From positions 1,426,001-1,490,000 of the forward strand of contig CM065889.1 in the NCBI GenBank assembly GCA_033439255.1: 64,000 nt of DNA, given 5' to 3'. The notes beneath the pieces are model-generated. The model saw nothing but the letters and a program-made list of their open reading frames with translations, was not told the origin of the DNA and did no database searches. Shown here in pieces: positions 1,669-34,185 of the stretch (the first letter of the stretch is position 1; each line of letters opens with the position of its first letter). Source of the stretch: Hericium rajendrae (Eukaryota; Basidiomycota; Agaricomycetes; Russulales; Hericiaceae). The translations under genes and the position numbers were made by a program.

Positions 1669-1712
1669 CTTGGGGGGAGAGGGCCGATGCTTCGCACGGC
1701 AAGACGATTCCT
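1669..1712 (-). repeat. Helentron 3' terminus with hairpin
   Basis: Read on the minus strand: GGAATCGTC (the 3' asymmetric inverted repeat), TT, the hairpin GCCGTGC/GCATCGGC with one bulge, then CCTCTCCCCCCAAG. The same block with few changes ends H1 at 37101 and H2 at 45893. Confidence 0.75.
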
Positions 1713-1734
1713 TTTTTATTTAATTATTTAGTCA

Positions 1735-4700
1735 TTAAGGTGCATAAATAAGTAAACTTGCTTCTCGCTCTTTTGCATAATGCAAATTATCAAAACCTGA
1801 CAGCATACCTTCAAACTCACATTGTCTACCAGTAGTTACTCCATCATAGTACCAGATCCTTTTTCCTTTGTCAATAATTCTTGCAGTAAAATGAACATCT
1901 CCAAAATACACTATAGCCACCAGTTTGAATGATGTCTTTTCATTATTTGTGTGATGCTTCATGGTAAATGAGTGATTTATTTTTATATTATGATAGTCCA
2001 CTTCTATAGCTATCAATGGTGGACTGTTGTTGGTAAAAACAGTAGTAGTATGAAGTGCACTATTGCACTGAGGGCATTTTTTCATACTAATTCCATTCAT
2101 AATTTTTCCTAATTCACTAGCAGTATTTGAGTCTGCAGACAAGCTAGGAATATGCCATACAAGATTATGAACATTTTCAGTCACAGAATACTCACAAGAT
2201 GTACAATTGTCTTCTACATATCCTACATCTGTTTGACATGCAAGTATAACAGAGGTTAACTCTCTGATATCAGTTCCCACTCCTTGTGTATTAGGAAATT
2301 TGATAGGATCAAATTGTGTGAGCAAAGCTCTAACATTTTTTCTTATTAACTCAAAGTCAGAATGTTCCAAGTGAGTCCATTCATTATTCAATGTACTACA
2401 GTAATTGTTCAAATTTGCTAAGTGATCTTCCCAAAGATCTTTTTTTGTCCTAAAAATATGATAAAGGATGGTAAACAATGTATCATATGCACAGCTCCAA
2501 GTTTGACCACACCATTTCAATCCAATAGGAGAAGAAACTTTTACCTTTGAAGTACCACTTGTTTTTTGTTTTTTTATCTTTCTTTTATCAGCAGCTTCTT
2601 TACTAACCTGATCTAATGCTTTTGTTCCATTTGCTGTATCAAAGCTATCTGGCTTCTCTTCAAATGTTACAAGCTTTCTTTTCTTAAGATTATCAGGCTC
2701 CTCTATACTATTTTTATTAATTGTATCAGTCTTTTGTTTGACTAAAATTGTCCATTCTGCATTCTTTGTGTTATGAACAAGTTCAAAAGGATCTGATTTT
2801 GTCCATTTGAGTGGAACAGGCATATTTGGTGGGACATAATCAACTCCTTTCCACATTTGATACTGCTGGATGCGAGCTGCTCTAGTAGGAGCATCAATGA
2901 TTGCAGGAAGTTTCTTGTAATATTGAAGACAAGTTATTTCATCTAATAGCTCAAGCTCTCTAAATTCTGATCTTAGATATCCAGGCAGTCTTCCTTTAAT
3001 TTTATCAGTATTAAATTGCTAAAGAATAGCTGTTCCGGCAATACTTGAGCTTCGTGAGAGAGCAGTATAGACTCCTCTTTGGTCCTTACAATTTTGAATA
3101 TCAACAACATTGAATGGTCGTGTTCTTCCTTGAGAAGCATAGTCTGTCATTGAAAAGTTAGGTAGGATGGGAATCTGAGATCTACTAATCCATATTTCTT
3201 TATCATTGGGCATAAAGCATTTGATTTTCTCTTCAACTCTGGAGATAGGAACAACATTAAGAGGCAGTCCTGTGAGTTGGACTGGCTTGGGTGCACAAGT
3301 CAATCTCACAAAGACTACGTCTAACACAAGCTTGTCATCAATACCAGTATGACACTTCCATCCTACGACCACACCTTTAGCTCCATTGGTAACACACATC
3401 TCAGTTGCTTCATTATGTTTGAGCATGACAGGCATTCCTATACACAAAGATAGTTTCCCTGCATAGTGTTTAGTCATAGATGGAATTAACTCCCATAGTT
3501 TTCTTTGCAAGGTAATGTGAATTTGATTGTTTGCTCTTATAGGATCACTATACATATTTTTTTCTTTTTACTTGACAAAGATTCATCAGCCTTATGCCAT
3601 CTATCTATAGAGTAAAAGTGTACAAGTTTTTGACCGGACTCCATTCCACATCGAATTGTTCCTGCTTTATTAATTTCATCTCTCTGAATGTTGAATGATG
3701 TAATGATAGATACATTTCGAAATTGAGGATCTGCAATGTTGGGTCTATTGGCCCCAGGTCCTGTAATTCTAGATCTAAGAAGGTTGATATCATCTTCTGT
3801 ACAATATTTGTATCTCATATTTTCTAAAGCTCTTCTAAATCTAGCATCATCAGGTGTCTGTGTTTTTTGACGCATATTCTGTCTTAAAATTACTACAGTC
3901 ACAAACTGATGCCATAATGCTTTTCCTAAACAAGCCTTTTGTTTTAAATGAGAATGAGTGGTGTGAATTATGGTATCTACATCCTGACTGTACAAGGCAC
4001 TATTAGCAGGAGGAGGTAGTTGAGCAAAGTCACCAGCAAGAATGATGTTCACACCTCCAAAAGGTTGATCTTCTACTTTGAGTGCACTGCTCATTTGGGC
4101 ACTGATATTGTACAAACTATTGCAATCTACCATAGACACCTCATCTAAAAGATATATTGAACATGTTGGAGCCTGGTATGGATGTCAGCTAAAGTAGATA
4201 CACCTTTGCCTCCTTCTGGTTGAAATTTATTGATAGCCAACATAGAATGATATGTTGATCCTCCTATCAAAGCTGCAGCAGCTCCTGTGGGTGCCATGAT
4301 TAGAAATTTGTAAGACTCTTGTCTCTGCTCAAAAAATCTGGTCATAGCTTTGATGACTTGTGACTTGCCAGTGCCAGCCATACCCCTAAATACATTTTGA
4401 GCTGCTCAGACTGTGGAGTCACAGCATGATTTGCAATAATGTTGAATGCTCTTGATTGCTCAACATTTAGTGTGAATGTCTTAGCTATTTCATCAATGTT
4501 TAATCTATCCTCTGGATTTTTCGGATGATAATTGTAATCTAAATATGCTCTACTCACTAACTTGACTTCATTTATATTATAAGGATCTCTATAGGAAGTA
4601 TCATTATTCTTTTCTGCATTGCTAGCTTCAAGATCTCTTTTGGCCAAGATAATATCTTTTTCTCGTGCTAGAGTTGCTTTCCATTCTCTTTGAGACTTGG

Positions 4701-7700
4701 ATAACATGACATTCTCATCAACAGCATTTTCTGTCTGCTCTATTTTACTTGGATTTAACCATCCAGTACCTTGAATAAGTTTATGCATCTCATACATATC
4801 TGCCAGTCTTTTTTGTTGTTTTTTGCCTATATCATCCCATTCTTCTTGAAGCTTTTCAGTCAGACTATCTACACCCCAGTTGGCAGTTGCTTCATCTTCA
4901 TCATGTTGGCCATCAAGCTCATGCTGGAATGTGGCAAAGATTTTATCACCAAAACTGTTGTTCTGTTCTTGTTGTTTTCTTTGCGCAGAAAAGTCATCTC
5001 TAGCATCATTGCATTCATATTTGATTTGAAAAAAATCCATCACCTGCTTTTGTCGAGAAGTAAACTTATATTTGTTAAAAGCATCATCCCATGACTGTTC
5101 TTTGTTCTTGAGATCAAGACCAGATCTCCAAGGCTTAAATAGTGTAAGCATAGTCTGACAATATTCTTCTCTATTGCCTTTATCTCTTCTAGGCAAAGAA
5201 CCACCTGTGAAATTTGGAACTTTGATATTCTCTTCCTTTAGTTTGTGTATGTAATGAGTCTTGAGTTGAGGATGTGGCTCAATAAATAGCTTTTTTGGCA
5301 CAATTCTCTTCTTTGTGTTGTATTGATTATTTTTTGGATTGTAATCCTTATCATTTGGATCATCATACTCATCTTCTTCCTCTTCCTCTTCTTCTTTCTC
5401 ATTATCTTCATTGTCTATATTTATATATTCATCATTATCTTCTTGATAACTTGGCTCTCTATCCAAATTGTTTTCTTCTTCAACTTGAGTAAAAGCATCA
5501 TTTTCATCAACTATCTTCATTTCATTTTCTTCCAGTTCATCAGTCTCAATATTCTTCATGATCACATCTACAATATCTTTTGATGTACTTGTCTTTTTAC
5601 TAATATTTGATTTCTGATCCAAGTGTGACTTTGATTTTTTCAATCCACTTAAAGATCTTTTCTCATACCGACAGATCCAATCATACAAAGTTACATCTAC
5701 TAGCTCCTTTGACCTATACATATAATCCAGAATTGGAGACAAACCTACTAACTTTCCTTGAATTTCATTTACTATGACTTTGTCAGGAACATTCTCATGA
5801 AAGTCATCAATTTGATTCCAGTCTTGGCTAACTTGTTTGACATAAGTACTCCAGAAGAAAACTTTGAACAAGTGACTTGTATAATGATCTGGATGAGACA
5901 AGAGATACATACATGCCATAGGAGATCCCATTTCTAACTTTACAGTTAACGAGTTGACTATCTGAACTATCAACTTTCTTGCTTTTTCTTGTCTAGAACT
6001 ATCACCACCAATATAAGTAGTGTTTCTATCAAACACACTACGAATAGCTTGAAATGACATGTGTATTCAGAGGTGATTTAGTAATGTAGTCAGTAATATA
6101 TGCAACAATAGACTTAATGGCAGTTCCTGAAAGCATACTAGTTACATCTGTATTACATCCCAAAAGATATGTTAAAGGTGTGGAAAATGTGTTAAGCATG
6201 GCCTCTCCTTTTTTCATGATAATGCTACCACTGTCCTTGTCTATTAAAGAAGCTAGATATGTGTCTCTTGGAAAACGAGCTTTGCAACTATCATATTTTT
6301 TATTCTTGCAACCTCCTCTATCACAACTGTGAACATTAGACAAATATAAAAGTTCATTGACTCTCTTTTTAAAATGTGTCCACCATGAACAGGTTTCTTG
6401 GCAATTGCTGCAATCAGTTATATATTCATTGTTATCATGCTCAACTTCAAAACTTGGTACTAAAGGTGCATCACCTTTTTTTACATATATTTTGCATGGT
6501 TTGGGTGGAGCTTCTGGTAAAACTTGAGTTGGCTCAACATAGTTGATATCCTTTTTTACTTGTTGTATCATGTCATTTTCTACTTTTGCCATAGTACTAT
6601 CTATAAATTCTCCTTGATGACAACTTTCTAAATATTTAATCATCTCCTTTTGAAACTCTGAAGTAGGATCTAAAATTCTATCTCTAATTTCCTGAGGTGA
6701 CAAACAACCTTGAATCCAGATCATACATCAGGAACCTTCAAAACTTTCTGTTTGACAGTTCCATAGACATCCATGACCTGCAAGCAGTTCATCAGACACA
6801 TCAGATACTCTCAGACAATATCAGCTACTCTCAGCTTGCTGCAGAATATTTGACCTCAAGATTGAAAAAAGTATCAATGCAGAATGCTCACAGATTGATC
6901 AGAACTGATCAGATTTATGTAAATTTTAGATATTGAAAAGTTTGTTGCATCTAATGATTAGAGTTGGATGACTACTATATCTGCCAATAGTTATTGATTT
7001 CAAAATATAAAAGCTCTGATCAGAAATTGATCTCTAATTAGAGCCTGCAGCTGGATCAGGTCTTGCAGTTGATCAGACTCTGCAGGGTCCATCAGAAAGT
7101 TTTGAAGGTTCCTGATGTAGTATGCAGATGGAGGCTTAGACGACCTTGTTGTTCTACAGTTCCATAGTATCCAGCAGTCTTACCATACAATCCTCTTCTT
7201 TTGTCATTGAATCTCAATACATGTTTGATAAACAAGTCCACCATGAGTTTGAAAAACCTGGCACCTGCTACAGGATTGCTAGCAATAAGACGAAACTGCT
7301 CATCCTTCTCATAAAGCTTTGGATAGAATCTCATGTCTTTGTCAGCAAAATACAAACAGATAGGATGTTTAAGATCTGCTGGTGCAAATGTAATAAACCA
7401 AGAAGGGGCACCCAAATATGATATAAGAGACCAGATCTCATTTCTCATATATTTACGACCTGTCTTTGAACCTTGCACATGATGAGCAACATGGTCCAAA
7501 TCATTGATGATTTGATAGCAAAGTTTTTCCTCATCTGTCCTCTGGCTGTACTCTTTCTCCATCAGCCAATCTATCTATAAGTTGACTTAAAACTTCTGGA
7601 TTTACTGACATGAGTCTATCTGCTATATTGGAAAAATTGGCTTTTTTAGCCAAAAGGTAACCACCTGTTGTACTCTCTTTAATTTGATCATGATTGATAC

Positions 7701-9543
7701 AAACCAAGGGAAACATAGCCTCATATTGAAATCTTTTGTCATGATACATCAATAGATCACCTTTTCTTGCATGATCAGATATTTTTACACTGCCATTGCT
7801 ATTGCCAACACCTCCTAGGCCATATGGAAACAGCCATGGAAATATTTGAGGATAAAGCTGAGAATTGTTATATATTGACTCTGGATTTGCAGCTTGTCCA
7901 ATGCCTAAAGCTCTGTTGTTTTTGCCTCTCATATGTTGTAAAGCAATTGCTCTCAGCTGTTGAGTAGTCTTTTTGTCCAAATCTCCACCTATCAAACCAT
8001 GTACAATAAAAGGACATTTTCCAGACTCTACACCTTGAAGAGGTTCATCAGATACTGACATCATTCCAGGCTCAATAGCATCATCTGAAATTTTGCACTC
8101 TACAACTACAGGAGGAATGTCTTCAGGATAGCTATTGAGATTCTCATAAGATATATCCAAGTCAGCATAATCAATATGATTAAGCTTAAGCCATTCTAAA
8201 GCATGAGCAACTTTATTTCTCCGAACCAAAAGAGGAGTCCGCTTAAATTCTTTTTCAGTAGGCTGAGTTTGACCTATATAAACAAATGCCATAACTTCAT
8301 CCAATTCATCAAGGCTAGGTGGAAGCTTTGCATATATCTTAGGCATGGGAGTGGAGAAAAAAACTGCATTTGCAGACATTTTGTATAAGCCAGACTTGTG
8401 CACATGCACAATGCATCGGTTGTGACACACCCTTGAGATAAGCATCTTTTCTGTCCAACTGAGATCCTGTAGCTGCTCTGGAATTTCACCTATCCAATTG
8501 CCATTGATTAGAGCATGTTTTGGTATCTTTTTCTTTTTTAACTCTTGAAGACAAGTATTGCAGATACTTTTTGAGTGTTTATCAAGTAATGGTCCTTTAC
8601 AAGATTGTATTATATCTGATGAGTTGTATCTTTCCTGTCTTGCAATGAAAGTATTGTCAGTTTCAAGGATAGATAAGTCTAAATCATGTTCAGACATATC
8701 TGTCAGATGTTGAAGTGAAGTCAAAAGACCACAGACACTACATAAGCTCTCCAATATCATATTTGGTTGTATATCATTACAGTATTCAGAAACAATATCT
8801 TCAATCAGTTTTTTTGAAGGAGGTTTTGGAGGAAAGGATTGTTCATTTGGCTGTATAATTTTTTTATGTTGTTTATATCTTTTACGTTTTATATTATTCT
8901 TATTTTCAACAAGTTTAAATAATGTAAAATGTTCTTTACAACTTTTTTCCTTACAGCTATGATTGCTTAATTTATTTTGCAAGTCTTGCAACATATTTCG
9001 ATCATTTGCTTGTATCTTATGTTGATGACATACATTAATAATAGTACGTTTTGGGAGTTTAGCTAGTTTGGAAATTGGAATGGTAGTTACAATCATATCA
9101 TTAGCTACTGGTACTAAATCTTGACTATGAGAAACAAAATTCCAAGATGTGTTTTTATGAAATACAACATCTCCTTGTATAAAATTAGAGATTTCATTGT
9201 ATGACCAAGTTATATTTGGAGCAAAACCTCCTAACATTTGTGGCTTTTTGGTATTTATTGACAACAAGATATTACTTTTCATACTATCTTGTGTGTTGTA
9301 TGATATACTATCTTTATAAGATGATATCCATCCAATAAGGAAGGACTTTTGTCTGCTCAATTTGGCTTCGGTTATGCATAATAGCAATATTAAAACTAAG
9401 CACGTCATAACATGTATTTTTTGTAGTGCGAGCGCCTTGGCCCAATTATTTGTACACTTTGATACAGGCACTTTGGCCAATGTTAGCTGCACGTAGCAAC
9501 TGGAGTGGCCCTTATCTAAATATATCATCAAAGAACTCACCAA
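1735..9543 (-). pseudogene. Helitron Rep-helicase with C-terminal cysteine-protease-like domain, frameshifted
   Basis: This would nick and replicate the element (HUH Rep) and unwind it (Pif1-type helicase). In order: an N-terminal zinc-finger-like region; a Helitron N domain (IGQAANPESIYNNSQLYPQI near 7900); the HUH motif GRLSLHLHT just right of 7117; the Rep tyrosine motif AYITDYITKSPL near 6080; Walker A GMAGTGKS near 4375; Walker B with DEVSMVD near 4130; and the helicase end TDYASQGRTRPFNVVDIQN near 3110. The tail (2856-1735) has WSCAYDTLFTILYHIF and HFTARIIDKGKRIWYYDG, like the Cys and His boxes of ubiquitin-peptidase (C19)-like folds. The frame is broken near 7545, 6055, 4383, 4140 and 3552, by an in-frame TAG at 3019-3021 and by the TIR element at 6726-7117. 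The 9543 start codon is not ATG; the true start is uncertain. As written it cannot make an active enzyme. Confidence 0.85.
6726..7117. mobile_element. M1: 392-bp TIR element (MITE-like) inside the Rep-helicase
   Basis: It has perfect terminal inverted repeats of about 25 bp, beginning CATCAGGAACCTTCAAAAC and ending in the complement. It is flanked by a TA duplication (6724-6725 and 7118-7119). The interior is AT-rich and full of CAGAT/ATCTG words, with no ORF of substance. Removing it and one TA joins SLHLHT to MIWIQGC in frame, directly after the HUH motif. It belongs to a loose CATCAG/CATCTG-ended group found all over the window. Confidence 0.85.
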
Positions 9544-9743: not shown

Positions 9744-11928
9744 TTAATCCTCCTTTTCACGAGCAAGCAAGTAGACACCCTGGATGTTAAGACTAAGGTT
9801 GGAGAAATCGCCTTTCATCCAATGGGATGTGGTATGAATAATCGCAACTACATCTCCAGCATGCAAATCATCCTGAATCACCTTGACCTCAGAATGCGTA
9901 TGAGCTTTACCGAACAAAAGAGATGGATCTCCTCGGTCAACAGATCTGCCATCACCAATACGCTTGTAAAGTGCAGTGCAGTCCCACACTGGAACTGTAT
10001 AACAAAAAAACAAAGTTAGTTGATGAAAACAACAAGATAGACGCACTTACCATCATAGGACACCGGAATGGCTCTCTTACTCATTCCTTTGATCCCCATC
10101 TTGAATGTGGCATCGGTCCCTGTAGCCTGAGAAGCTGGGCTAACATTGGACCACTTGTCTCGTGACTTGGAAGACGGAGTGGCCAACTCCTTGGAGTCTA
10201 ATGTATAGTTACACTTAGTATTTCAGGTTGATAAAGATAATGTGCAAAACTTGCCGGATGACTGAGATTTCTTTTTGGAGGAAGAAGGTGCAACCGGACT
10301 CATCGCAGTTGAAAAAGGAAGCGCATTGTCCATGCAGTATATGCTTAGCTTGGACTTCTGAAAGACCAGGCCATAGAATGCCAAAGCCCTTTCCCATTCC
10401 ATGCTCAAGGGAGAGACATAGAGCTCTTTGATCTGACGTCCATCTAAAATAAGATAGTCATATTGCATACAAGAGATGATAACAATAAAGAACGTACTGC
10501 TTTCCAGCACCCGTGCATTGGCTAGATGAGAATCTACAACAAATCCAACGGTAAGACACAAGGCTGTGCTTTTATTTCCGTCCTTGAATGCAATAGCATG
10601 ACCAGTGCCTAAAGGCATAGCAACAAAGTCACTTGGATCTGCACGAGAGGGATTCATCAAATTCAAAGATCGGTTCTCCTGGAATGTGATAATCTGAAGG
10701 AGATAGCTGTGCACATACACTATTAATATATTGTACAATAAAATGAGTTGAACAATAAACTTACTCGAGTGTAATGTTACCATAGGCATCATCTGTCAGA
10801 CAACTAACTGCGTAGGTCATGACATCTACACTGCCACCAATCAGACTAGTAGACGTGCTATAAGAAAAAAGAGTCGTAAGTCATTCTGAAAAGCTTACAA
10901 CAAAAATCAAGCGTACTTTAGAGGGGGAAGTTGTTTGTAAAACATTGTCATAAGGGGATCAATCAACGTAGCAATGGTGACATTGCAGCCCTCTGGAATT
11001 CTGAAAGAAGAATGATTTAGTATTCCAATAGATGTGACAATAACATACAGATTGTCGTCCATCATGTCCAAGTCAATGTTGTCTTGATTCTCTTTGTTTT
11101 CATCTGTGCTCTTCTGCACGTCATCAGAAACCATTGCATCTGTAGTGTCAGCAGCTTCGTCATCTAGAAAGACATCCTTTGATCTATAATGTGTAGGCAA
11201 ATCAGCAATCATTCTACAGATAAAACTGTACGACATACGTCTTCTGAGGATTAACCTCCTTAATCGAAAATGGACTGCCAAGTACAATTGTAAAGCTAAG
11301 CAAGCTTGGACTATGCATGTGGAGAATGCAATAAAATCACGTACTCATCATCCGATATCAAGGTATGCTCTTTTCTGCAAAAACAACAATATCAAGAAAG
11401 CAAATGTATGAGAAAAAAAAACATATAAGTACTTCTCATTTATCTTCTGTTTCTTCGGGGCAGAAGCAGTCCCATTATTGTTAGTCATTTCTGATGTTTT
11501 GCGTAAGCGGAGAGGCTCTCTTATTCTTATGTTAATGCATATCTAAACAGTAAAAGATAAAAAAAACTCACCGATCTGCTTTAGCCATCCGTTTAAAACG
11601 TGTAGTCAATGGAGTCTGCAACTCTGGCCTACGCACAAAATAGTCAGAAAAGTATGAAACAAAATTCCAAAAAGATAAGTGTACTCTTCATCGGACTCGA
11701 ACACTGGCTCTTCCAAAGCTCTCTTTCTACTGTCAATGGCATTAGCCCAATCATATAATTGCACAAAATAAAGACATACGAGTTCATAGAACCTAGTGAG
11801 CTAGCCAGAGATGACGTCCGGCTGAGTCCCTTGGGAGCCGAAGGTTGAACGGTCATCTTGGGCTTACGAACAGGGGTGGAAGGAAGAGCAAGGACCTTGT
11901 CCTTGTTGCTGCGAGACCGAGTATTCAT
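9744..11928 (-). CDS. Unknown multi-exon cargo protein 1
   Basis: Not recognised. The start is taken at 11928 (MNTRSRSNKDKVLALPS), with a TATATAAG-like box near 12052-12058 on the same strand about 125 bp upstream. Splice signals suggest about ten exons with 45-60 nt introns; one near 10253 appears to use a GC donor (CCG|GCAAGT). The product is basic and serine-rich at the N-terminus, then acidic (VQKSTDENKENQDNIDLDMM). It has a middle part with NPSRADPSDFVAMPLGTGHA, a segment with IKELYVSPLSMEWERALAFY, and ends GVYLLAREKED before TAA at 9746-9744. No signal peptide or membrane segment is seen, so a nuclear role is a guess. It is transcribed in the same direction as the Rep-helicase. Confidence 0.6.
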
Positions 11929-20125: not shown

Positions 20126-20159
20126 ATTACGTAAGGCCCGATCGTGATTTCCAGCGCAA

Positions 20160-21516: not shown

Positions 21517-24500
21517 AAAGATGTCATGTGATCATGTTGGCTTTCAGCCACCCGGCCTTATTGCTGCCACACCTCTCTTGCTCTCTGCTGTCATCTCTGC
21601 TACAGACAAGGTAAGCTTCCACTCTCTCTTGTCCTATGTTAATGGTGCATCTAACCTTCTGTAGACCTCATCTAATCTTCACAATCATGGCTTCCAAGTC
21701 AGCACAGTCAGATTTCAGGTATGACCCCTAAACTCATTCTTGATCTGCTATCTGATTTTACTGATGCTTTGTCAGCTGGATACCAGCCAAAGAGTTTGCT
21801 AAAACCAAACCTCCACTGGTCTCAGAGACTGTAAATAAGGCACAAGCTGAGAATGTAGATTTCAGACAAGAAGCAAAGTTGCTCCAAGCATTGCCTTGGT
21901 TCAATGGTGATATCTTGACCATCTTCACACTCAAGACCCTCTTGCAGTGGAGGCATGTCAATCCTCCAACCAAAGAGGACTTGAAGACTTTAGTTCTGGC
22001 AGATCAGGTTGTCGAAGACAAGTTGTTGGACGTGTATGAGGTAATGTTGTACTCTTTATTCGAGTTCCGATGTTGTGTATTAAATATATTCTAGAAATTT
22101 CTGACTCATATGGATGACTGGGGAAAGGAACAGTTCTATGATTTGCCTCCTCCTCAGAAAGGAAACCTGTGGAAGCTCCTGGTCGAAGGCGGTCAAAATC
22201 TAAACAATGAGCAGGACCGCCAAGCTATTTTTCATGCCGTTCTTAATATTGGTTCCAATCATCTTCCTCTGATTACCAACATCATTGCTCGCTATCAGAT
22301 TGTAGATGTCATCTGCAAGATTTATGATCTGTCACCTGCTCGAGGCCACAAGCAATTACATCTGCCTCAAGTTAGTGCATATAAGCAGCTTGTGCAGAAG
22401 GCAGGTATTCTCAAAGGGGTATGTGGTTACTTTTTCATTCTTTACTCAGTGATCTGATATATCCAAGGTTGTGGAAGATCTGAAGTCATGGCCTAGTATT
22501 ATGGAGAAGGCATACCATGCATTTCATAAAGACCTGGACCAATTGCTCCTTTTAGGGACAGAGGCCACTACATCAAGTGACAGTATCATTCTTACACCTA
22601 GTAAAGTGCTTGAAAGCTACTGGACTTCTACAACCTGGGATGATGAAGCTGCGGCCAAGATCACAAGTGCACTTGTGTGGGGTGTGGTGAAGAAAGACAA
22701 AGACAATCTAGTTTTTTCTATAATTCAGCACTTTGAAGCGGCAGCTGCTGGTCTACAAGCCATGATGAAGGTAATAAAGCTCAAATGTTGTATGTCTTGA
22801 CAAATTAATAATCTTACTTCAGACAGCTATATTTATCACAGATGAGGATACATTTTGGAAAGAGCTTTTTATGTGAGTCATAGTATTTATGCTTAATTTA
22901 TTATTTGTTCTGACCGTGATCTTGCTATAGAGATGCAAACTTATCGGATGAAGACATTGCAAAAATAGAAACTCTCAGACGTCCTAAATTTCTATCGCCT
23001 ATTCTCCTTTGCCTATCACTCTCTCCAATTGTGCTATTCTTGGGACGATCATTGTATACAGATGCTTTCAGTCGTGCTGTATATCTACAGGTATGTTTAA
23101 TATATCTATATCATTTTATCTGTTAACAATTTTATATGCATATGTTCTAGGTCTTCATTCTTTTAGGCAATGTTCAGCGAGCACCAAATCTGATCAAGTT
23201 TGAACGGATGATATGGATCACTCTGTTTGCTATTGCACGGGGTGCACTTGCTAGCATGCATGTACCTCAACTTCTTTCCTTTTGAAAAGTCCATTTTTCT
23301 CAGAAGGCAGAGGTGGCTGATGAGAGTAGCTGGTTCCAAGAGCCTGGATATGGTAGGAATTTTGAACATCACTTGTAAATTGGTTTTTACTAATATATTT
23401 TTAGGACGAGCAGAAGAGCAGTCTGATAATGCTGCATCTAATGATCAAGATGAAGATCAATTGGAAATAAATGTTGTTCTCAATGCAGAAACTCAACAAT
23501 TGGTTCAGAGTTTGTCAGAAGATCACCAACAGACTGTGGCAGCAATTGTAGCTGGACTTAACCCTAGCAAGGTAAATCCAAATACAATTGTGCGAGACCT
23601 TGTGGAAAGTTGGCAAAGCAAATCAAGTAAGTCATTATTTGTTATATATTTAATCTAATCAATCAATTCAAATGTGTGCAGGTGATGAAGAGGATGAGGA
23701 TGAGGATGAGGATGATGAAAGTAGCATTGATCAAGGTAAGTAAAAAAAATCAATTGATTCTTGGCTTGATAATCTATAATCTAATATGAATATATTTTAG
23801 CTAAAACAAAAAAGTCATTAAGGCGGAAGAAAGAGGTGAAAAAACCAGTTTACATAGAGTCTGAAGATGAGGAAGATGAGGAGCAGCAGAAGCAGAAGCA
23901 GAAAAAAGAAAAAGAGAGAAAGGAGAAGGAAAAGAAGGAGAAGGAAAAGAAAGAAAAGGAGAAGGAGAAGAAGGAGGAGAAAAAGGAAAAGGAGAAGAGG
24001 GAGAAGGAGAAGAGGGAGAAGGAGAAGAAGGAAAAAGAGAAGAGAGAGAAAGAAGAGAAGGAGAAGGAGAAGAGAGAAAAAGAAGAGAAGGAAAAGAAGA
24101 GACAGCAAGAAATCCAAGCTGAGGTAGACCCTAACAGGTTTATCAGAAATATGGAAGGCAGAAAGGAAGGTACTGGTGCACGTAGGGAGGCCATTGAGGA
24201 ACTCAAAACTAAGATGAACACACTACCCTTTCAGCTGGCTATACCATCAGTAAGCTTCTCATATCAATATCTTTGGATGCATATAAAGAACTAATCTTGT
24301 TTTAGGAAATACCTGCATTGGATAACAAACCTGCTAAGGTAAAAATGCTAAATTTATGTGAAGATTTCTATGACTAACTTGTCTAATTTTGATCAGCTGC
24401 ATTCTGAGCCTATCATGCTTCCTGCATATTGTGCAAAGAGTAATGATATAGTTCATATTTCCTACAAACCTGTTATCATGGAGGATGAGGTGAGAGATCA

Positions 24501-26228
24501 GTATATATATATTTGCACTGAGATTCTGATACATATCATTTAATAGGATGACTTTCAGATCAAGTTAGGCAACAAGTTAAAAACAGCTCTTGAATCTAGC
24601 TTGCAGCCTAATGGAAAGCCACGCATGTGTCAAGAATCTGCCAAGCAACATGAACATTCTGACAGAAATACTGGTTCTGCAGTCTATGTCACGTCCTGTG
24701 ATAGTTTTGCAGAGCTAGACACCTCTATCATTCAAGATATCTTCTCTTACAGGCATATCTTGGTACATGGTCAGCCTAGTTCTAGAAGATGGGGTTGGAA
24801 TGAGGAATCTATGGAAAGATTGGGTGATCTGGATCAGATCATTGAGATTCAGGGTAAGATCATACTTATATCATAGGACAGGTACTAACAAATGCTTATA
24901 TGACAGACATGGCTCATAGATCTGGACAAAAAGCACAAGCACAGCTGAGGAAAGGCACACGTCGTGATATTCTTCAAGCAGGCATGGATCCAGAACTGCT
25001 TGCAGAAGATTTGCATGTCCAGTATGATGGCAAGGTCTTAAATGGATTGGATAATCCTTGTCCAGAACCTTTGGCAGAAATGCCCAACTTCAGGTATGAT
25101 TATAAATTTATGTGTGCTTATTTATCATATTGACTTGGAGATATCAAGTGCTTTAGCTACTCATGAACTTGTGCTGCGACACTTTGAAGCTATCCTCCGA
25201 CCTAAGAATCATAATAGGCCAACAACAGATCTATCCTGGGCCACTGCAGCAACCAAGGGATCCATATCAGATTTTCATGAAGACACAGATGGCTTAGCTA
25301 CAGCTTCAAAGCCACTAGTTGGCACCAAGCTCTGGATTTTGCTAACACCCAAAGATTCAAGCAAAGACAATATTGGCAACTTGAACACCTATCTGGACAT
25401 TGAGAACTTTTCTGATCTTGATCTGGATAAGTATTATGTGGAGGGTATTCTTCTTCAGCCAGGTCAAACTTTGTAAGTAAAAATAATTTGCTTTGTGACT
25501 TTCAATTCTCACTTCTGACATTATTATAGATATCAGCGTGCTTGTACTCCCCACTGGGTGTATGGAGTTGAGGCAACCCTTGTCTATGGGCGTCACTTCT
25601 ATGCCCAGTCATGCTTGGATCGTAGCTTCTTAGGACAAATTCATTCTCAAATGGTGGGAACAATTCACAACAACACCTCTCATCCATCTGTTCGTCCTAT
25701 ACTAGCTGACTTCATGGCTTGGTGGGCTCATCTGTTGGACCATCCCTCTCCTTGTGGTGAGTTCTATCTTACAATTTGATTTGTATTATCCTCTCTAAGT
25801 ATATTGTAGCTGAGTATCCCAATATCAAAACTGTTCAAGGGATGCACATCTTTTTAGCAGCTGCACATGCTGTCATCTTTGCTTCAAGCTTATCAGTTGT
25901 CAAGAACAATATACCTCGACCTGATGCTACAATTCAAGCCCACAGATCTATCAATGGACTTGCTCTTACAAAGATGATCATGCATTATCTCAGTGAAGGC
26001 TGTCATGAGAATTCACCCAATCCCTTGGCATTCTTTACTGAAAGCAGCAAAAAGGTGGCTCAGGCTTGGATCTATTATAGGGAGCAGATTGAAAAGAGGT
26101 CAGATCTCCTAGAGGCTGTTGATCTCAAGATGTCCTCTTCTTCATTATTTTCCTCTCTCTGCTCTGACTTGGAGACCTTCTGGACCAAGAAACTGAGGAT
26201 GCAAGACCAAATGAACAGATGGTGGCTT

Positions 26229-26651
26229 TGTCACGGATCGCTCCATTTCTCTCCGCCTTCTTCTCTGCCATCAAGGCATCACGTCGGTCATGTGCTCCAG
26301 CAGCCCCATCACATGTTCACTTCCTCACATGACCTGGGGCTATCCTTCACCCATGCCCTTGTTCCCCTTTGGGACATCCTATTGTTCTCCCTCCCATTGT
26401 TCTCCTTTTGGCCACCATTGTTCTCACTCTATTGTTCGACCCGTTATGGTGTCCATTGTTCTTTTCCCATTGTCGTCCCAGTACTTATAGGCTCCCTGTC
26501 GCTCGCCTATTTCCCTAGATTGTCCATTTCGTCTGTACCGTACTGTACCTCCAATACAGGTCACTGCGCTGCTAGTCGCTCTCTGCTCTCTCGCTCCCAT
26601 CATCGCTGGTGACTTGGGTGGTTCTCTGCTGTCTACGACCGAGTCTTGACA
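26229..26651 (+). repeat. 5' LTR of the Gypsy element
   Basis: 423 bp, TG...CA ends, matching 32902-33324 base for base as far as I can read. CTTATAGGCTCCC near 26485 may hold the promoter. Confidence 0.95.
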
Positions 26652-27888
26652 CCTGGACAATCTCTCATACACCCGCCTCACCTCCCTACTATCGCCCATC
26701 ATACCTTTCTTCTTTGAACCCTTCACCGCCGACATCTTCACCGAATCCCGACATCCATTCCATCAACCTCATCTCCCCTTTCCCATCGCCAACACCATCG
26801 AGGGTAGTGCACTCATCCCCTCCTCCGCTATTGTGCTGTGAAGCGTTGGGAAGCCGAAGGAGTTTGGTTTCGATTGAGGTCGTGGAAACCACGTGCAGGT
26901 GCTATCTCCATTGCCTTATACGTTCGAATTCGAGTTTCCTTTGACGTCGACTTGCAAGAATTCACGTTCGGTGCCTCGGATATCGCTTACCACTGTCGCC
27001 AACCCAACCGAGGATCCCCTGCAAGTATCCTACCATCGACCTCGTTCCCCTTTTGCACACTAGGTCTCTTCACCCCCGAACCCTCACCTGAGCCTGTGTG
27101 GGCCAGAGAACGCCTCGGCCACCGATTCCTCAGAAACCCGTACTCGGACCCCCTGTACCCTCGTGCTCTTGGTCGTCGCCCAGTTGCGGCTGACTTCTTC
27201 TAGACCTCACCATTGATCCCACCGACCCCCGTTTCCAGACCACAGAACCATACCCACTCGGCGTCTTCGCCTCGCTCGACGAATACTTCATCTACACCCT
27301 TTCTGGCATCGTTCGAATAGACTTCGTCACTCCGGACGAGGACGACGACGGTCCCGCACAGTGGTACTTCGCCGATCGTGACGACCAGGCAGACCTCGAG
27401 CTTAACGACTTCGACGTCGCAGCTACAGAACACCGTCGCCAACACCCCGCTACCCCGCCGCTTCCCACCGTTGCCCTTCCTAGTGCAGATTCTCCCCTGC
27501 TCGCACCACCCCACTTGTTGTTCCTCCAGGTATTACCTTCAACCCGGTAACCAACAACTACTACGCATACCGCTCCGACACCAATCGGCTTGTAGTCAGT
27601 TGGAGACCCAGCCTCGTAGAAGAAAGTGACCTGTGGTTTTGGCAGGCCAGTACCCTCTTCTTAACCACTGCAGAACTCGCACTCTCTCAAGCAGTTATAG
27701 AGAATCTCACTCAGCAACAAGCTACCTGCCTCGATACCCTTCGGGCCCCACCACCACCACCTGTTTCGACGCCTACCCCAGTACCAGTCCCCTCACCTGC
27801 TCCACCCGTTGCCGCTGTTGCATCGACATCCACCGTCAACGTCAAACCAACCATTGCCACAGCCCCCCCTGTTCAGCCATCCATCGAC
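26652..27888 (+). other. Gypsy leader and likely 5' part of gag in broken frames
   Basis: Segments in different frames look coding: LDLTIDPTDPRFQTTEPYPL with SLDEYFIYTLSGIVRIDFVT (27200-27540), then ITFNPVTNNYYAYRSDTNRL (27530-27700), a proline-rich run, and in-frame entry into the gag ORF at 27889. Gag may therefore start well upstream, with indels between segments. No clear primer-binding site could be assigned after the LTR. Confidence 0.5.
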
Positions 27889-28878
27889 ATGTCCAACCCT
27901 GAGATCGGCGTCAAACCTGCTCCCTTTGAGGGAGATCGTTCCAAGTCCAAGGAATTCCAGCTGCGTATTCGCTTATTCCTTCGCGCCAACTCCACCCGGT
28001 ATAAAGATGATACCGCCCAGATCTCCCTCTTCCTCGACCTCTGCCAGGGCCCTATCGCCGGCCAGTGGGCCACCCAGCGCGTCGAGGAGATCCTTGAGGA
28101 TGACGATCTCGTGGCTGCAAAAACATCTCCAGCTCATGTTCCCCGCTACGCCAACCTCACCGCCCTTCGAACTCGCTTCAACTTGGACTTCTCTCCCCTT
28201 GACGACTCCAAGGATGCCTCCCATGCTATCCAGACCCTCCAGATGGGTACGCGCCCGGTAGTCGACTACATCACCGAGTTTGAGTCCTTCGCCCCTCGCA
28301 CCGGCTACAATGACGTGGCCCTGATCGACTGGTTCCTGCATGGCCTCAACAGCGCCCTGCGCGATGATTGCCAGCGCAGCTACCCCACGCCCACCACCCT
28401 GGCTGAGTGGAAGGCGAGGGCCCGTGACAGGAATGCTGCCTACCTCATGCGCACCCGGTTCCAGAGTCCCCGCCCTACAACTGGGCGCACCCCGGTGAGC
28501 ACTCGCTCCCCTCAGTCCACATCTACTGGCCGATCCCGCACAGTCGCTGCTACAGGTGCCCCACTGTCCAAACTCTCGGAGCCTGACCGTGAGCGCCTCA
28601 GGCGTGAGGGCGGTTGCTTCCGCTGCCGCCAGAAGGGCCATGGCTTCCGCGACTGCCCCCTCAATGCCGACTCCAACCCCCGTGCCCCAACCCCTCGTGT
28701 CCGAGCGCTAGAAACCGGCTCTGCCCCGGGAGTAGCTCCAGAAGATGCAGCCGCCGCCCTTGCTGTCCCCGCCATCAACAGGTCCATCGCCGACTTATCG
28801 TCGCAGTTGAAGGACTTGAGCGAGGAAGAGAGGGAAGAGGCAAAGGCTGCATTAAAGGATATGGTTGAGGGTTTTTAA
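27889..28878 (+). CDS. Gag polyprotein (capsid and zinc knuckle)
   Basis: The 329-residue ORF begins MSNPEIGVKPAPFEGDRSK. It has a capsid-like domain, FEGDRSKSKEFQLRIRLFLR through WFLHGLNSALRDDCQ (about residues 10-180). A CX2CX4HX4C knuckle (CFRCRQKGHGFRDC) lies near residue 245 and would bind RNA. It stops at TAA 28876-28878 just before the pol frame. It probably extends upstream in the same frame through a proline/valine-rich stretch. Confidence 0.9.
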   Translation: MSNPEIGVKPAPFEGDRSKSKEFQLRIRLFLRANSTRYKDDTAQISLFLDLCQGPIAGQWATQRVEEILEDDDLVAAKTSPAHVPRYANLTALRTRFNLDFSPLDDSKDASHAIQTLQMGTRPVVDYITEFESFAPRTGYNDVALIDWFLHGLNSALRDDCQRSYPTPTTLAEWKARARDRNAAYLMRTRFQSPRPTTGRTPVSTRSPQSTSTGRSRTVAATGAPLSKLSEPDRERLRREGGCFRCRQKGHGFRDCPLNADSNPRAPTPRVRALETGSAPGVAPEDAAAALAVPAINRSIADLSSQLKDLSEEEREEAKAALKDMVEGF

Positions 28879-28901
28879 AGCGCCCCCCGGTCACGTCGTC
28901 C

Positions 28902-29972
28902 GTGGGTGGCAAGAAACATTTCTTTGATCCGTCGAATCGCTTCTCTGTACTATCCGACCCCTGTGAGCAATCGTATCCATCGTCTTTGCGCATGTCCGCT
29001 ATCACACCCAACCGTCAGACACCGTCCATTACGCTCCAGGCCAAGATTATCACTGCCCCGATCAAGAAACAAATCGACGCTGAGGCACTTCTCGATAGTG
29101 GTGCAGAAGGCATTATTATGCACCCCGAGTTTGCCAAGAAACACCAGTTCCCCCTCAAGAAACTCCCTAAACCCTTTCCCGTTCGCAACGTGGACAACTC
29201 CGAAAACATCATGGGCTGGGTCCGCTATTCCGTCAACCAGAACATCCGCATTTACGCCAAGGACTCGACGTCCTTCCATGAGGAGACAGCTGAGTTCTAT
29301 CTCGTTGATATTGGCGACTATGACATTATCCTTGGGACCGATTGGTTACAGGAACACAACCCTGAAATTGATTGGGTCTCTCGTCGTGTTGACATGACTC
29401 GCTGCCCTCCCTCTTGCACCCTGAATAAGCCCCCGGTCAAAAACCTGTCCACTCGCTCAGAACGCCGCCAATCAGCCCCTCGTCCACCAGTCCTCAGTAC
29501 CGCTGCTGTACTGCTCCCCCCACCTTGCCCCCCTCCATTGCTCCCACTGCCCCCGCCATTTGTTCCTGCCCCACTTCCCAAATACGTGATCCCTGCTCGC
29601 CGAGTCCAAGGTGTCCGTCTTCGCCGCATCCACCTGTCCAAAGTTCCTGCACGTCTGTTCACCGAGGATGATGACCCGCGACCTAACGTCGATGATGACT
29701 GGGTTGAAGAGGGTCTTCGCCTAGCTGGTGTTCTCCCTGACTGGGACACACCACCCCCTCCAGATGACGACCCAGACTACCAACACACCATCCGTATCCG
29801 TCGCTCTTTCACCAATGCTCAGAAACTGGCTGAGCATGTGGCCGCCCATGTTGCGGAGAAGTCCTTTGCTGAGATGGTTCCCCTCAGTACCAGGATTTCC
29901 AACCCGTCTTTGATGAGGAATCCTCCCATTGCCTTCCCGAACGTCGCCCTTGGGATCATGCCATCGACCTGA
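28902..29972 (+). CDS. Pol: aspartic protease region
   Basis: The ORF begins MGGKKHFFDPSNRFSVLSDP. The protease active site ALLDSGAEGIIMHPEFAKK lies near residue 63, and a downstream DYDIILGTDWLQEHNPEIDW fits the retropepsin C-terminal part. A proline-rich linker follows. A frame break near 29880 separates it from the RT region, whose sequence continues in another frame (FDEESSHCLPERRPWDHAID). Confidence 0.88.
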   Translation: MGGKKHFFDPSNRFSVLSDPCEQSYPSSLRMSAITPNRQTPSITLQAKIITAPIKKQIDAEALLDSGAEGIIMHPEFAKKHQFPLKKLPKPFPVRNVDNSENIMGWVRYSVNQNIRIYAKDSTSFHEETAEFYLVDIGDYDIILGTDWLQEHNPEIDWVSRRVDMTRCPPSCTLNKPPVKNLSTRSERRQSAPRPPVLSTAAVLLPPPCPPPLLPLPPPFVPAPLPKYVIPARRVQGVRLRRIHLSKVPARLFTEDDDPRPNVDDDWVEEGLRLAGVLPDWDTPPPPDDDPDYQHTIRIRRSFTNAQKLAEHVAAHVAEKSFAEMVPLSTRISNPSLMRNPPIAFPNVALGIMPST

Positions 29973-30093
29973 AAGATGGTTTTGAACCCCGTTCATGCAA
30001 GGTCTATCCCATGGCTCCCACTGAGCAGGAGGACCTCGATTCGTTCTTGATGACCAGGTCAAAAAAGGCTACATCCGTCCTTCCAAATCCCCT

Positions 30094-33005
30094 ATGGCGA
30101 GTCCCTTCTTCTTTATCAAGAAAAAAGATGGAAAACTACGCCCTGTCCAGGACTATCGCACCCTCAACAAGGGCACCATCAAGAATGAATATCCCCTGCC
30201 CCTCATCTCTGAACTCGTTGACAAGCTCAAGGGTGCCAAAGTCTTCTCCAAGATGGATGTTCGTTGGGGTTACAACAACGTTCGCATCAAGGAGGGCGAC
30301 GAATGGAAAGCCGCCTTCAAAACCAACCGCGGTCTCTTTGAACCCCTGGTGATGTTTTTGGTCTTACAAACTCCCCTGCCACGTTCCAAGGAATGATGAA
30401 TGAACTTTTCAAGGATCTCATCGACACGGGCAAAGTCGTCATCTACATGGACGATATCCTCATTTTCACCGAAACCCTCGAAGAACATCGCGACCTCGTG
30501 CGCAAGGTCCTCCAACGCCTCCAGGACAATGACCTCTTCCTCAAACCAGAGAAGTGCTCTTTCGAGCAGCCCTCCGTTGAGTTCCTCGGTCTCATCGTCT
30601 CCCATAACACGCTTGCCATGGACCCCGTCAAGGTTGCAGGCATCGCTGAATGGCCTGCCCCCCGTAACGTCAAGGATGTCCAGTCCTTTGTTGGCTTTGG
30701 CAACTTCTATCGACGCTTCATCCAGGACTTCTCCAAAGTCGCCCGTCCCATGTTTGACCTTACCAAGAAAGACCATCCTTGGGCCTGGTCTGCTGAATGT
30801 CAACATGCCTTTGAGGCTCTTAAAGCTGCGTTCACCTCGTCCCCAGTCCTTATCATGCCTGACCCGTCCAAACCCTACTTGGTTGAGGTCGATGCCTCAG
30901 ACTATGCCACAGGAGGTATCCTATCCCAGCGTGGGGAGGACGAGCAATGGCACCCTGTTGCTTACATCTCCAAGGCCTTCACTGCCCCTGAACGCAACTA
31001 CGACATTTATGACAAGGAACTCCTGGCCATCATCCGTGCCCTCGAAGCCTGGCGGCACTACCTGGAAGGCTCTCCCCATACTGTGGAGATCTGGACTGAC
31101 CATAAGAACCTGGAATACTTCAAGTCTGCCCAAAAGCTGAGTCGTCGTCAGGCTCGCTGGGCTCTCTTCCTCACTCGTTTCGACTTCACCTTGATCCACA
31201 AACCCGGTATTCATCACCGGCCAGATGCCATGTCGAGACGACCTGACCATAGAGAGGGGGTGGACGACGACAACTCAGATCGTGTCCTCCTCGACCCCAA
31301 GTACTTCCAGATTCGTGCTACACGTCCAGCCGCTGTCAAGTCCATTGGCAATGCTGATCTTCGCCAACGCATTCACAATGCCAAGACCAAGGATATTGAG
31401 GTCGTTCAAGCCCTTGACGTGATCCTGAACAACGGTCCTCGCTCCCTCGTCAAGAACCTCCAAGAATGGAACTACGAGGATGGCCTCATCCTCTTTCGTG
31501 GCAAAGTCTACATCCCTGCTGACAAGGACCTTCGGCGAGATATCGTCAAGCTGCATCACGACACTCCCATGGCTGGTCACCCCGGACGCTACAAGACCTA
31601 TGAGCTCCTCAGTCGCAACTACTGGTGGCCCGGTATGTCTGTCTTCGTTCGTGATTATGTTGATGGCTGTGCTACCTGCCAGGCCACCAAGGTTCAAAAT
31701 CACCGCCCCCATGTTGAAACAATCCCCAATGCCATCCCTACCCGTCCCTTCCAAGACATTACCTCGGACTTCATCGTCAAACTCCCAGAATGCCAAGGCT
31801 ATGACTCCATCAATGTGGTCGTCGACCGTTTTACAAAGCACGTCTCCTTCACTCCTTGTAACGAGACCATTACCAGTGATGGCACAGTCGACATCCTTTT
31901 TGACAGGATTTATTGGAACTACGGCCTCTGGGAACGCCTCATCTCTGATCGTGGCCCACAGTACGCAGGCAAAGTCATGCGTGGCGTCTTTGACAAACTT
32001 GGTATCAAGTCCTCCCTCAGCACCGCCTATCATCCACAGACCGATGGCGAGTCAGAACGCGTCAATCAAGAACTCGAGCAATTCCTTCGTACCTTCTGCA
32101 ACTACCGTCAGGACGATTGGGTCCAATGGCTCCCTTACGCTGAGTTCTCGCACAACCACCGTATCCACAGCGCCACTAACCGAGCTCCATTTGAAATGCT
32201 CCTCGGCTATATTCCCACTGCCATCCCCACTGTCAACCCCACATCGTCTACACCCGCCGTCGAGGATCGTTTCCGTCACCTCGAACAACTTCGCACTGAG
32301 GTCCAGGCCAGCCTTCAAACAGCTGCTGATCTCATGAAGCGCAACAACCAGGACCATATGCATGACACCATCCACTTCCAGGTTGGCGACAAGGTCTGGC
32401 TCGATGGCAAGAACATCAAAACCACACGACCCAAAGCTAAGCTTGCTGATCGACGCCTGGGACCTTTCGAAATCACTGATGTCCTGGGCCCAGTCTCTTA
32501 TCGACTGAAGCTACCACCCACCTGGCGTATCCACCCGGTGTTCCACACGTCCCTGTTGTCCCCTTACAAGGAAACCGATGCTCATGGTCCCAACTTCCCT
32601 GCACCACCACCTGACCTTGTGGAGGGCGAGGAAGAGTACGAAGTTGAGTCTGTCCTCGATGCTTGTCTCACTCGGAACAAACGCGGCATTGAATATCTCG
32701 TCAAATGGGCAGGCTACCCTGATTCAGAAAATCAGTGGCTTTCACGTACCTCCCTTTCCAATGCCCATGGTGCAATCACCGACTTCTACACCCACCATCC
32801 GCATGCACTCAAGGCTCCCAATCTTCGTGGACTCATCTACCTCGATCCCGTCCATGCTCATCACGCACTCCAGGCGAAAGTGCGTCTTAGAGAGGGGGTG
32901 ATGTCACGGATCGCTCCATTTCTCTCCGCCTTCTTCTCTGCCATCAAGGCATCACGTCGGTCATGTGCTCCAGCAGCCCCATCACATGTTCACTTCCTCA
33001 CATGA
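30094..33005 (+). CDS. Pol: reverse transcriptase, RNase H, integrase and chromodomain
   Basis: RT begins near 30094 (MASPFFFIKKKDGKLRPVQD) and changes frame near 30356 within a T run. The catalytic YMDDILIF is at about 30443. RNase H follows with EVDASDYATGGILSQ and DHKNLEYF. Integrase has the HHCC zinc site (HHDTPMAGH, CATCQ), DRFTKHVSF, SDRGPQYAG and HPQTDGESERVNQ, with the catalytic D, D and E placed as in the DDE family. The C-terminus is a chromodomain (EYEVESVLDACLTRNKRGIE, YLVKWAGYPDSENQWL), which in this clade can direct insertion to marked chromatin. The frame runs about 100 bp into the 3' LTR before a stop. An earlier break lies near 30050. Confidence 0.92.
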
Positions 33006-33324
33006 CCTGGGGCTATCCTTCACCCATGCCCTTGTTCCCCTTTGGGACATCCTATTGTTCTCCCTCCCATTGTTCTCCTTTTGGCCACCATTGTTCTCAC
33101 TCTATTGTTCGACCCGTTATGGTGTCCATTGTTCTTTTCCCATTGTCGTCCCAGTACTTATAGGCTCCCTGTCGCTCGCCTATTTCCCTAGATTGTCCAT
33201 TTCGTCTGTACCGTACTGTACCTCCAATACAGGTCACTGCGCTGCTAGTCGCTCTCTGCTCTCTCGCTCCCATCATCGCTGGTGACTTGGGTGGTTCTCT
33301 GCTGTCTACGACCGAGTCTTGACA
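32902..33324 (+). repeat. 3' LTR of the Gypsy element
   Basis: 423 bp, apparently identical to the 5' LTR, followed by the target duplication GGCTT and the resumed JmjC-like exon. Confidence 0.95.
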
Positions 33325-33575
33325 GGCTTGATGCCAATGCGGACCTTCCTGAAAGCCTGCAGCCCTATGTTGGAGATGGATCACAATCGGTGTGGAAGAA
33401 GCCTGATGGCTATCAGAGTCCTCCCTGGATAGAGACTCACTTTGCAGAAAATATAAAGGTGTGGAAGACTATTGGTGCTGATAAGATAGTAGAGGAGGTG
33501 GAAAAGAGGAAGGGTATAGATGAGGAGGCAGATGAGAATTCAAGTCAGCCATCCAAGAAGACTCGTCACAAGTAG

Positions 33576-34167
33576 TGGCATTACTCTACAGTAGAAATGA
33601 TTGTATGGCACAATAGCAGAGTTTATTGACTTCTCTTTTATTTTTCACTAAGGCAAAGTACAAGAGGGCAGAGATCCACGATATAGTTAGTTCTCTAAAT
33701 TTATTGTAATATTCTCTATATCATTTTAATAGATGCTATCTAGAGTGCAAGAAGGCCATGGCATACAGATCATCATGCAAGAAAAACTTGAGACTGAGTG
33801 TAAATGTAAAAAGTCAGTTGACTAGTCATACGAGCTAAGCCCTAACTTGAAGGCCGAGGATATCTCATCCAATGTGCCTAAAAGCAAGAAGCATACAGAA
33901 AGAGTCGCTCATCATGAACTACCTATCAATAGTCTACAATCATGACTGATACAGATGCACACATCTCTCTACAAGCTTTGGTTATAAATAATCAAGCATG
34001 ACTGAAAGCTGTATCGTGCTCAGTAAGAAAAGCGAAAACAAATGACAGATGGTGGAATCGAACCTACAACCTTATCTTTATATTTTAGGTGTGAGAAATT
34101 ATTACCATAAAAGGCATTACATTGGCTGGGTGTCATCTTTTTTGAGTTGAAAAGCGGGTTAGAGTAA
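33576..34167. other. Helentron 5' subterminal region with a tRNA-like relic
   Basis: AT-rich with no gene. On the minus strand near 34075-34045, GGTTGTAGGTTCGATTCCACC looks like the T-arm and acceptor side of a tRNA. H1 and H2 carry a related tRNA-like block at the same distance from their 5' hairpin. The rest of a tRNA fold is not convincing here. Confidence 0.4.
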
Positions 34168-34185
34168 ACGATTCTAAGGAATCGT

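What the first reader, a model, noticed from the sequence alone, without database searches (positions are those of the whole stretch)
1669..34185. A 32-kb Helentron that seems to carry five cargo genes
Seen: both ends match the ends of H1 and H2, with asymmetric inverted repeats, terminal hairpins and T/T flanks. Between them lie the Rep-helicase and five multi-exon genes. Removing the element puts the host hairpins 1561-1586 and 34456-34483 about 350 bp apart, close to the 320-333 bp in E2 and E1. Known: Helentrons can carry extra genes, but such a large set is unusual. Inference: the whole block moved as one unit.
Basis: partly seen in the sequence, partly recalled or inferred. Interest (0 to 1): 0.9.

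Follow-up and report, generated by a model that had tools for sequence, protein, structure and literature searches.

The report
Giant rolling-circle transposon carrying five genes
In what looks like a mushroom genome, a 25,000-base rolling-circle jumping element copies itself together with five extra genes, three of which a sister family of elements also carries, so they look like part of the element rather than accidental passengers.

Summary
The block 1669-34185 is a real mobile unit. Another copy (C12:1203914-1228937, 25,024 bp) is collinear end to end at 99.5-99.7%. The window copy is longer because a 7,096-bp Gypsy retrotransposon and a 392-bp MITE-like insert sit inside it. Unoccupied counterparts of three insertion sites were found. 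The window's own (C7:2645700-2646249) matches 550 of 550 joined flank bases at 98%, with an exact junction.

The five cargo genes (G2-G6) accompany RepHel in most copies found and show dN/dS of 0.19-0.26 between two subfamilies. Relatives of G2 and G3 sit beside RepHel in a second family, in the same order and orientation, with a G6 relative further on. A Dentipellis gene model joins a G6 relative to a RepHel-type helicase. So the genes look long-held, not freshly captured. No cargo gene has a credible Pfam match; G6 resembles a JmjC oxygenase by motif only.

By termini this is a Helitron2-group element; the endonuclease of strict Helentrons was not found. Published fungal cases reach about 14 kb with one to four genes, some of them shared between subfamilies. 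Verdict: real, a new variant of a known kind.

The parts
1669..1720 (-). 3' terminus of the element (RepHel orientation) with hairpin and inner inverted repeat
   Evidence: 14 genome matches of 93% or more to 1668-1740; junctions in 4 copies; fold
1735..9278 (-). RepHel gene (HUH Rep, PIF1-type helicase, C-terminal extension); frame interrupted in this copy
   Evidence: model (transferred to window coordinates); motifs; Helitron_like_N and DUF6570
6726..7117 (.). 392-bp MITE-like insert (TIR CATCAGGAACC, TA duplicated) inside RepHel
   Evidence: absent at this place in the C12 and C11 copies, related repeats elsewhere; junction
9744..11928 (-). cargo gene G2, modelled 464 aa, 15 exons
   Evidence: model; copies; dN/dS 0.22
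13288..14538 (+). cargo gene G3, modelled 327 aa, 6 exons
   Evidence: model; copies; relatives in Hericium and Dentipellis
14662..17032 (-). cargo gene G4, modelled 703 aa (model uncertain in the middle)
   Evidence: model; 15 loci
17231..19399 (-). cargo gene G5, modelled 570 aa, 9 exons; HKD...H pattern by eye
   Evidence: model; 15 loci
20300..21370 (.). GC-rich tandem repeats with palindromes between G5 and G6; breakpoint zone of the subfamily chimera
21514..33575 (+). cargo gene G6, modelled 1,226 aa on the C12 copy, JmjC-like motif; split here by the Gypsy. An ATG at 21687 may be the true start
   Evidence: model; copies and relatives; motif
26229..33324 (+). Gypsy LTR retrotransposon, 423-bp identical LTRs, 5-bp duplication GGCTT; not part of the unit
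34150..34185 (-). 5' terminus of the element (RepHel orientation) with hairpin ACGATTCCTTAGAATCGT
   Evidence: 9 genome matches of 95% or more; junctions in 6 copies

Best explanation
The block is one copy of a giant Helitron2-group rolling-circle transposon. Its unit is about 25.0 kb and carries RepHel plus five other multi-exon genes (G2-G6). SHOWN by sequence: whole-unit copies between the same termini; precise insertion with no target duplication beyond one ambiguous A; cargo present in the complete copies, with dN/dS well below 1; a second family with G2 and G3 relatives beside RepHel in the same order and orientation. INFERRED: RepHel nicks at the hairpin-bearing termini, copies the whole unit by rolling circle and inserts it at T/T, as known Helitrons do; the genes serve the element rather than the fungus; G6, and perhaps G5, are Fe(II)/2-oxoglutarate oxygenases that lift silencing from the element. 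Odds: mobile unit about 0.95; long-held element genes about 0.75; anti-silencing role about 0.35.
For: Collinear 25,024-bp copy and a second complete copy. Empty sites for three insertions. G4 and G5 at the same 15 loci, 11 of 15 with a family terminus in the right place and orientation. dN/dS 0.19-0.26 for G2-G6 between subfamilies. Second family: G2 relatives at 7 of 7 loci, and G3 relatives at 7 of 8, close to its RepHel; full-length G6 relative further on in the C6 copy. Dentipellis model with G6-like and RepHel-like halves.
Against: No expression data and no demonstrated movement. The window RepHel is interrupted. RepHel dN/dS was not obtained (script fault). The subfamily-B copy used for dN/dS itself shows stops in the G4, G5 and G6 models, and G6 frameshifts, part of which may be model errors. 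G4 and G5 are not detectable in the second family. Its C6 copy has unrelated open frames between G3 and G6, and its 5' terminus was not found. At least five G6 relatives are not tied to either family. G5 found no relative among 5.8 billion proteins. The JmjC profile hits are not significant (E 0.71 and 1.5). Both fold predictions failed.
Confidence: 0.8

Rival explanations
1. Recent capture: the Helitron picked up five host genes not long ago, for example by reading past its terminator, and they are passengers without a role for the element.
For: Gene capture is the textbook behaviour of Helitrons (PMC6431247, passages). G4 and G5 are seen only in this family. Some copies have lost frames.
Against: G2 and G3 relatives (about 50% and 70%) stand in the same order and orientation in a second family. 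dN/dS is 0.19-0.26. No close G2-G5 copy with the look of a single-copy host source appeared in the searches, although 4 of 15 G4/G5 loci have no confirmed terminus.
Confidence: 0.15
2. Composite or segmental duplication: a short RepHel-only Helentron lies beside another element or host block, and the whole was copied by recombination between repeats.
For: The region is repeat-rich and nested. A palindrome lies just right of RepHel at about 9602-9630 (by eye). Subfamily B joins the left module to a different right module between G5 and G6.
Against: Three insertion sites have empty counterparts that end at the Helitron termini. Flanks differ between copies. Both complete copies run through 9.6 kb.
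Confidence: 0.04

Closest known systems
Fungal Helitron2 elements such as FoHeli (PMC5148889, passages)
   Same: RepHel, asymmetric inverted repeats, terminal hairpins, ambiguous T at the insertion point; no endonuclease domain found in fungal Helitrons there either
   Different: FoHeli elements are about 5-11 kb; here 25 kb with five further genes
HELPO1 Helitrons of Pleurotus ostreatus (PMC4289320, passages)
   Same: Mushroom Helitrons with one to four carried genes of unknown origin, reported only within Helitrons; capA, capA2 and capB are about 45% similar between copies and subfamilies, so shared cargo has a precedent; one copy also holds a Gypsy
   Different: Up to 13.7 kb in their table (one copy enlarged by a Gypsy) and fewer genes; sequence relation to G2-G6 not tested
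Helitrons encoding a TET/JBP dioxygenase (PMC12730594; abstract, passages and section 3.2.3)
   Same: Fungal Helitrons, including Helitron2 of Agaricus bisporus, carrying an Fe(II)/2-oxoglutarate oxygenase, proposed to counter silencing
   Different: G6 looks JmjC-like; a TET/JBP match was not obtained for G5 or G6; that paper reports only Kyakuja elements of this kind in Russulales
Gene-capturing Helitrons of maize (PMC6431247, passages)
   Same: Rolling-circle elements up to 39 kb that carry several gene pieces
   Different: Those are gene fragments; here modelled whole genes shared by many copies
Starship elements of Pezizomycotina (search listing only)
   Same: Large fungal mobile elements with gene cargo
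   Different: Starships use a tyrosine recombinase (listing); here an HUH RepHel

Membership tests
Helitron2 group | RepHel with HUH Rep and SF1 (PIF1-type) helicase | tested here: met
   HUH, Y..DY..K and Walker A motifs; Helitron_like_N; helicase part aligns to the PIF1-matching part of P0001. Helicase core of the window not scanned on its own
Helitron2 group | Asymmetric inverted repeats and hairpins at both ends | tested here: met
Helitron2 group | Precise insertion without target-site duplication | tested here: met
   Three insertions with empty counterparts; one A ambiguous
Helentron in the strict sense | T/T insertion point | tested here: met
   4 of 4 left and 6 of 6 right junctions; one T may belong to the element
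Helentron in the strict sense | Endonuclease domain in RepHel | tested here: not met
   No such Pfam match in the RepHel pieces scanned (first 1,050 aa, C-terminal 261 aa, three window frames); the whole protein was not scanned in one piece
JmjC oxygenases (G6) | JmjC domain with HxD...H iron ligands | tested here: inconclusive
   Pattern kept in G6 and P0001; KDM7 chains first and third of four PDB profile hits, E 0.71 and 1.5; no Pfam match
TET/JBP dioxygenases (G5) | TET/JBP oxygenase domain | tested here: inconclusive
   HKD...H pattern by eye; no PDB match to E 10, no credible Pfam match; fold failed

The most novel reading that the evidence does not exclude
Hericiaceae fungi hold a lineage of giant Helitron2 elements with a virus-like gene set, partly inherited with RepHel across element families and genera, including one or two Fe(II)/2-oxoglutarate oxygenases that act as an element-borne anti-silencing kit aimed at histones (G6, JmjC-like) and DNA (G5, TET/JBP-like).
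Probability: 0.3. Interest if true: 0.88.

Novelty: new variant of a known kind. Interest (0 to 1): 0.7.

Why it matters
Helitrons are known for copying gene fragments. A 2019 review calls full-length gene acquisition exceptionally rare and puts fungal Helitrons at up to 14 kb (PMC6431247, passages). A 25-kb rolling-circle element that moves five intron-bearing genes as a unit, with signs of selection on them and relatives of three in a sister family, shows that this mechanism can carry a stable multi-gene programme. If G6 is a demethylase-type oxygenase, it is also a directly testable case of a transposon that undoes its own silencing.

Tried and rejected
Rejected: segmental duplication (three insertions with empty counterparts); a hidden 5' end near 9.6 kb (both complete copies run through it); the Gypsy as part of the unit (not inside the element in the other copies read). 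A tRNA B-box-like stretch near the right end gave no ARAGORN tRNA.

Led nowhere: Pfam for the cargo (only weak hits above E 0.1, below the curated cut-offs); PDB for G5; protein database for G5; fold predictions of G3 relatives and of one G5 exon (pLDDT 32 and 34), so no fold search was run. Paper searches showed no such element; only listings were seen except for five papers read in part (PMC9741609, PMC5148889, PMC6431247, PMC4289320, PMC12730594).

Limits: gene models are automatic, without transcripts. G4 in the C12 copy, G6 and the RepHel helicase part hold modelling artefacts. One search lists only matches of 250 bp or more. Genome-search counts are lower bounds, and I tallied loci by eye from the lists. 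21,000 bases of the C14 stretch read N. That the host is one of the Hericiaceae is inferred from three protein relatives only.

Full report
WHAT IS THERE. In RepHel orientation (minus strand) the element starts at 34185 with ACGATTCCTTAGAATCGT, a hairpin, and ends at 1669 with a second hairpin about 16-35 nt from the terminus CCCCAAG. The ends share a 10-bp asymmetric inverted repeat. Two shorter elements in the window, H1 (37101-39537) and H2 (45893-40951), have the same kinds of ends. RepHel occupies about the left third of the unit. Its N-terminal part matches DUF6570 and Helitron_like_N, and HUH, Y..DY..K and Walker A motifs are readable. No endonuclease family matched the pieces scanned. 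Five more multi-exon genes were modelled on the C12 copy: G2 464 aa (-), G3 327 aa (+), G4 703 aa (-), G5 570 aa (-), G6 1,226 aa (+).

26229-33324 is a Gypsy LTR retrotransposon with identical 423-bp LTRs and a 5-bp target duplication, inside G6. 6726-7117 is a 392-bp MITE-like insert inside RepHel. Without them the unit is about 25.0 kb. The RepHel frame of this copy is interrupted.

COPIES. The host genome is held (46.77 Mb, 19 contigs). C12:1203914-1228937 is a 25,024-bp copy in three collinear pieces, 99.50-99.65% identical, that cover everything except the two inserts. C11:1879836-1911545 is complete with other inserts. C5:1319133-1372147, C14:1907124 onward and C5 about 1072000-1100172 are further copies, nested or partial. 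From the lists I tally nine of 15 left-end matches that carry RepHel and cargo, the C4 one without a G6 found. Five others have no cargo near them in those lists, and the last (C4:1831097) lies beside a G2 piece of the C4 copy. G4 and G5 each occur at the same 15 loci. At 11 of the 15 a family terminus lies in the right place and orientation; the other four (C3:1407k, C12:1689k, C12:1718k, C7:2540k) have none confirmed.

EMPTY SITES. The joined flanks of the window insertion match C7:2645700-2646249 over 550 of 550 bases at 98%. At the junction the empty site reads CTCACCATA|CATCC against CTCACTGTA[element]CATCC. The C12 insertion has an empty counterpart in C5 (282 nt, 95.7%); the C11 insertion has three, two in C5 and one in C12 (93-94%). 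These counterparts are related repeats elsewhere in the genome, not alleles shown to be allelic. In all three cases the inserted piece is two bases longer than CTTGG...CGT, so one flanking A is ambiguous and there is no other duplication.

SELECTION AND HISTORY. Between the C12 copy and the C5:1319133-1372147 copy (subfamily B), dN/dS is 0.22, 0.19, 0.24, 0.20 and 0.26 for G2-G6. That B copy shows one stop in the G4 model, one in G5 and three in G6, and G6 frameshifts, some of which may be model errors. RepHel was not measured because of a script fault. Comparisons among the 99% copies have at most ten changes per gene and scatter from 0.27 to 1.14 where defined. The C5 about 1072000-1100172 copy has stops in G2, G3, G4 and G6 and ratios of 0.30-0.56. 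Along the element, B is 94-98% identical to the C12 copy in 15 of the first 18 one-kb windows and 89-92% in the other three, then 71-81% in the last seven. Subfamily B is therefore a chimera, with the change between G5 and G6, in the zone of GC-rich repeats.

A SECOND FAMILY. A family whose RepHel Rep region is 82-94% identical to the window's (8 loci; one fragment 75%) also carries G2 relatives (49-51% over the best stretch; 7 loci, all within 8 kb of its RepHel) and G3 relatives (about 70%; 8 loci, 7 of them within about 17 kb of its RepHel). G6 relatives (52-58% over the first stretch) lie 18-52 kb beyond G3 at 6 of those 7. At least five further G6 relatives (40-57%) are not placed. In the C6 copy, RepHel (75% over 1,595 columns), G2, G3 and a G6 relative matched from residue 34 to 1119 follow in the window's order and orientation. 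G4 and G5 are not detectable there, and unrelated open frames fill the gap. I did not find the 5' terminus of that copy, so that its G6 belongs to the same element is likely but not shown.

OUTSIDE THIS GENOME. G6 found one relative, a 1,963-aa Dentipellis fragilis model whose first half is G6-like (53% over the motif region) and whose second half is a RepHel-type PIF1 helicase (36% over 855 columns). It may be a fused gene model. G3 found Hericium alpestre (70%) and Dentipellis sp. (46%). D. fragilis is in the Hericiaceae, Russulales; the family of Hericium is recalled. G5 found none.

FUNCTION. G6 has a conserved H.DTDG...HWVYG pattern. A two-sequence profile ranks KDM7 JmjC demethylases first and third of four PDB hits, with the putative iron ligands aligned in the one shown, but at E 0.71 and 1.5. 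G5 shows an HKD...H pattern by eye only. A 2025 paper reports TET/JBP dioxygenases in many fungal transposons, including Helitron2 of Agaricus bisporus, and proposes escape from silencing (PMC12730594; abstract, passages and section 3.2.3). By analogy I think that G6, and possibly G5, protect the element from silencing, at about 0.35.

KNOWN KINDS. Termini and protein place it in the Helitron2 group (PMC5148889, passages). The strict Helentron hallmark, an endonuclease, was not found; that paper found none in fungal Helitrons either. Mushroom Helitrons with one to four carried genes, up to 13.7 kb, are known, and some of those genes are related between subfamilies (PMC4289320, passages), so the idea of shared cargo is not new. 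A 2019 review gives 14 kb for fungi and 39 kb for maize and calls full-length gene acquisition exceptionally rare (PMC6431247, passages). The kind is known; the variant is new in gene number, in size for a fungus and in the reach of the conserved set. I found no description of it in searches. On re-checking I lowered interest from 0.72 to 0.70 because of the Pleurotus precedent.

Noticed in passing
37101-39537 and 40951-45893: Two shorter elements (H1, H2) with the same kinds of ends; they share long stretches in inverted order (up to 88% over 838 nt). About 25 genome matches to the first 53 nt of the left end suggest a large non-autonomous family.
   Followed up: partly
C12:1203834-1204061 (L013): The 25-kb C12 copy sits inside the terminal region of another member of the same element group, so these elements insert into one another.
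   Followed up: yes
20300-21370: GC-rich tandem repeats of about 159 bp with palindromes (CGTCACCGTTCGGTGACG) between the divergent genes G5 and G6; copy number varies between copies, and the subfamily chimera changes here.
   Followed up: partly
1561-1586, 34456-34483 and several places from 44 to 63 kb: Host repeats hold different perfect hairpins such as GAGTACTGCTCG...CGAGCAGTACTC at the same relative place; the arms change but the pairing is kept (by eye).
   Followed up: no
9602-9630: Palindrome GGATTCTATCGC...GATAGAATCC just outside the RepHel start; its core resembles the 5' terminal hairpin and could be an old end (by eye).
   Followed up: no
L037-L038, C6:2122040-2125428: Second-family copy: open frames that look like pieces of glycogen synthase and a long frame that may be an F-box protein lie between G3 and the G6 relative (names from recall).
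   Followed up: no
34048-34075: tRNA B-box-like stretch (GGTTCGATTCC on the minus strand) near the right end; no tRNA predicted.
   Followed up: partly
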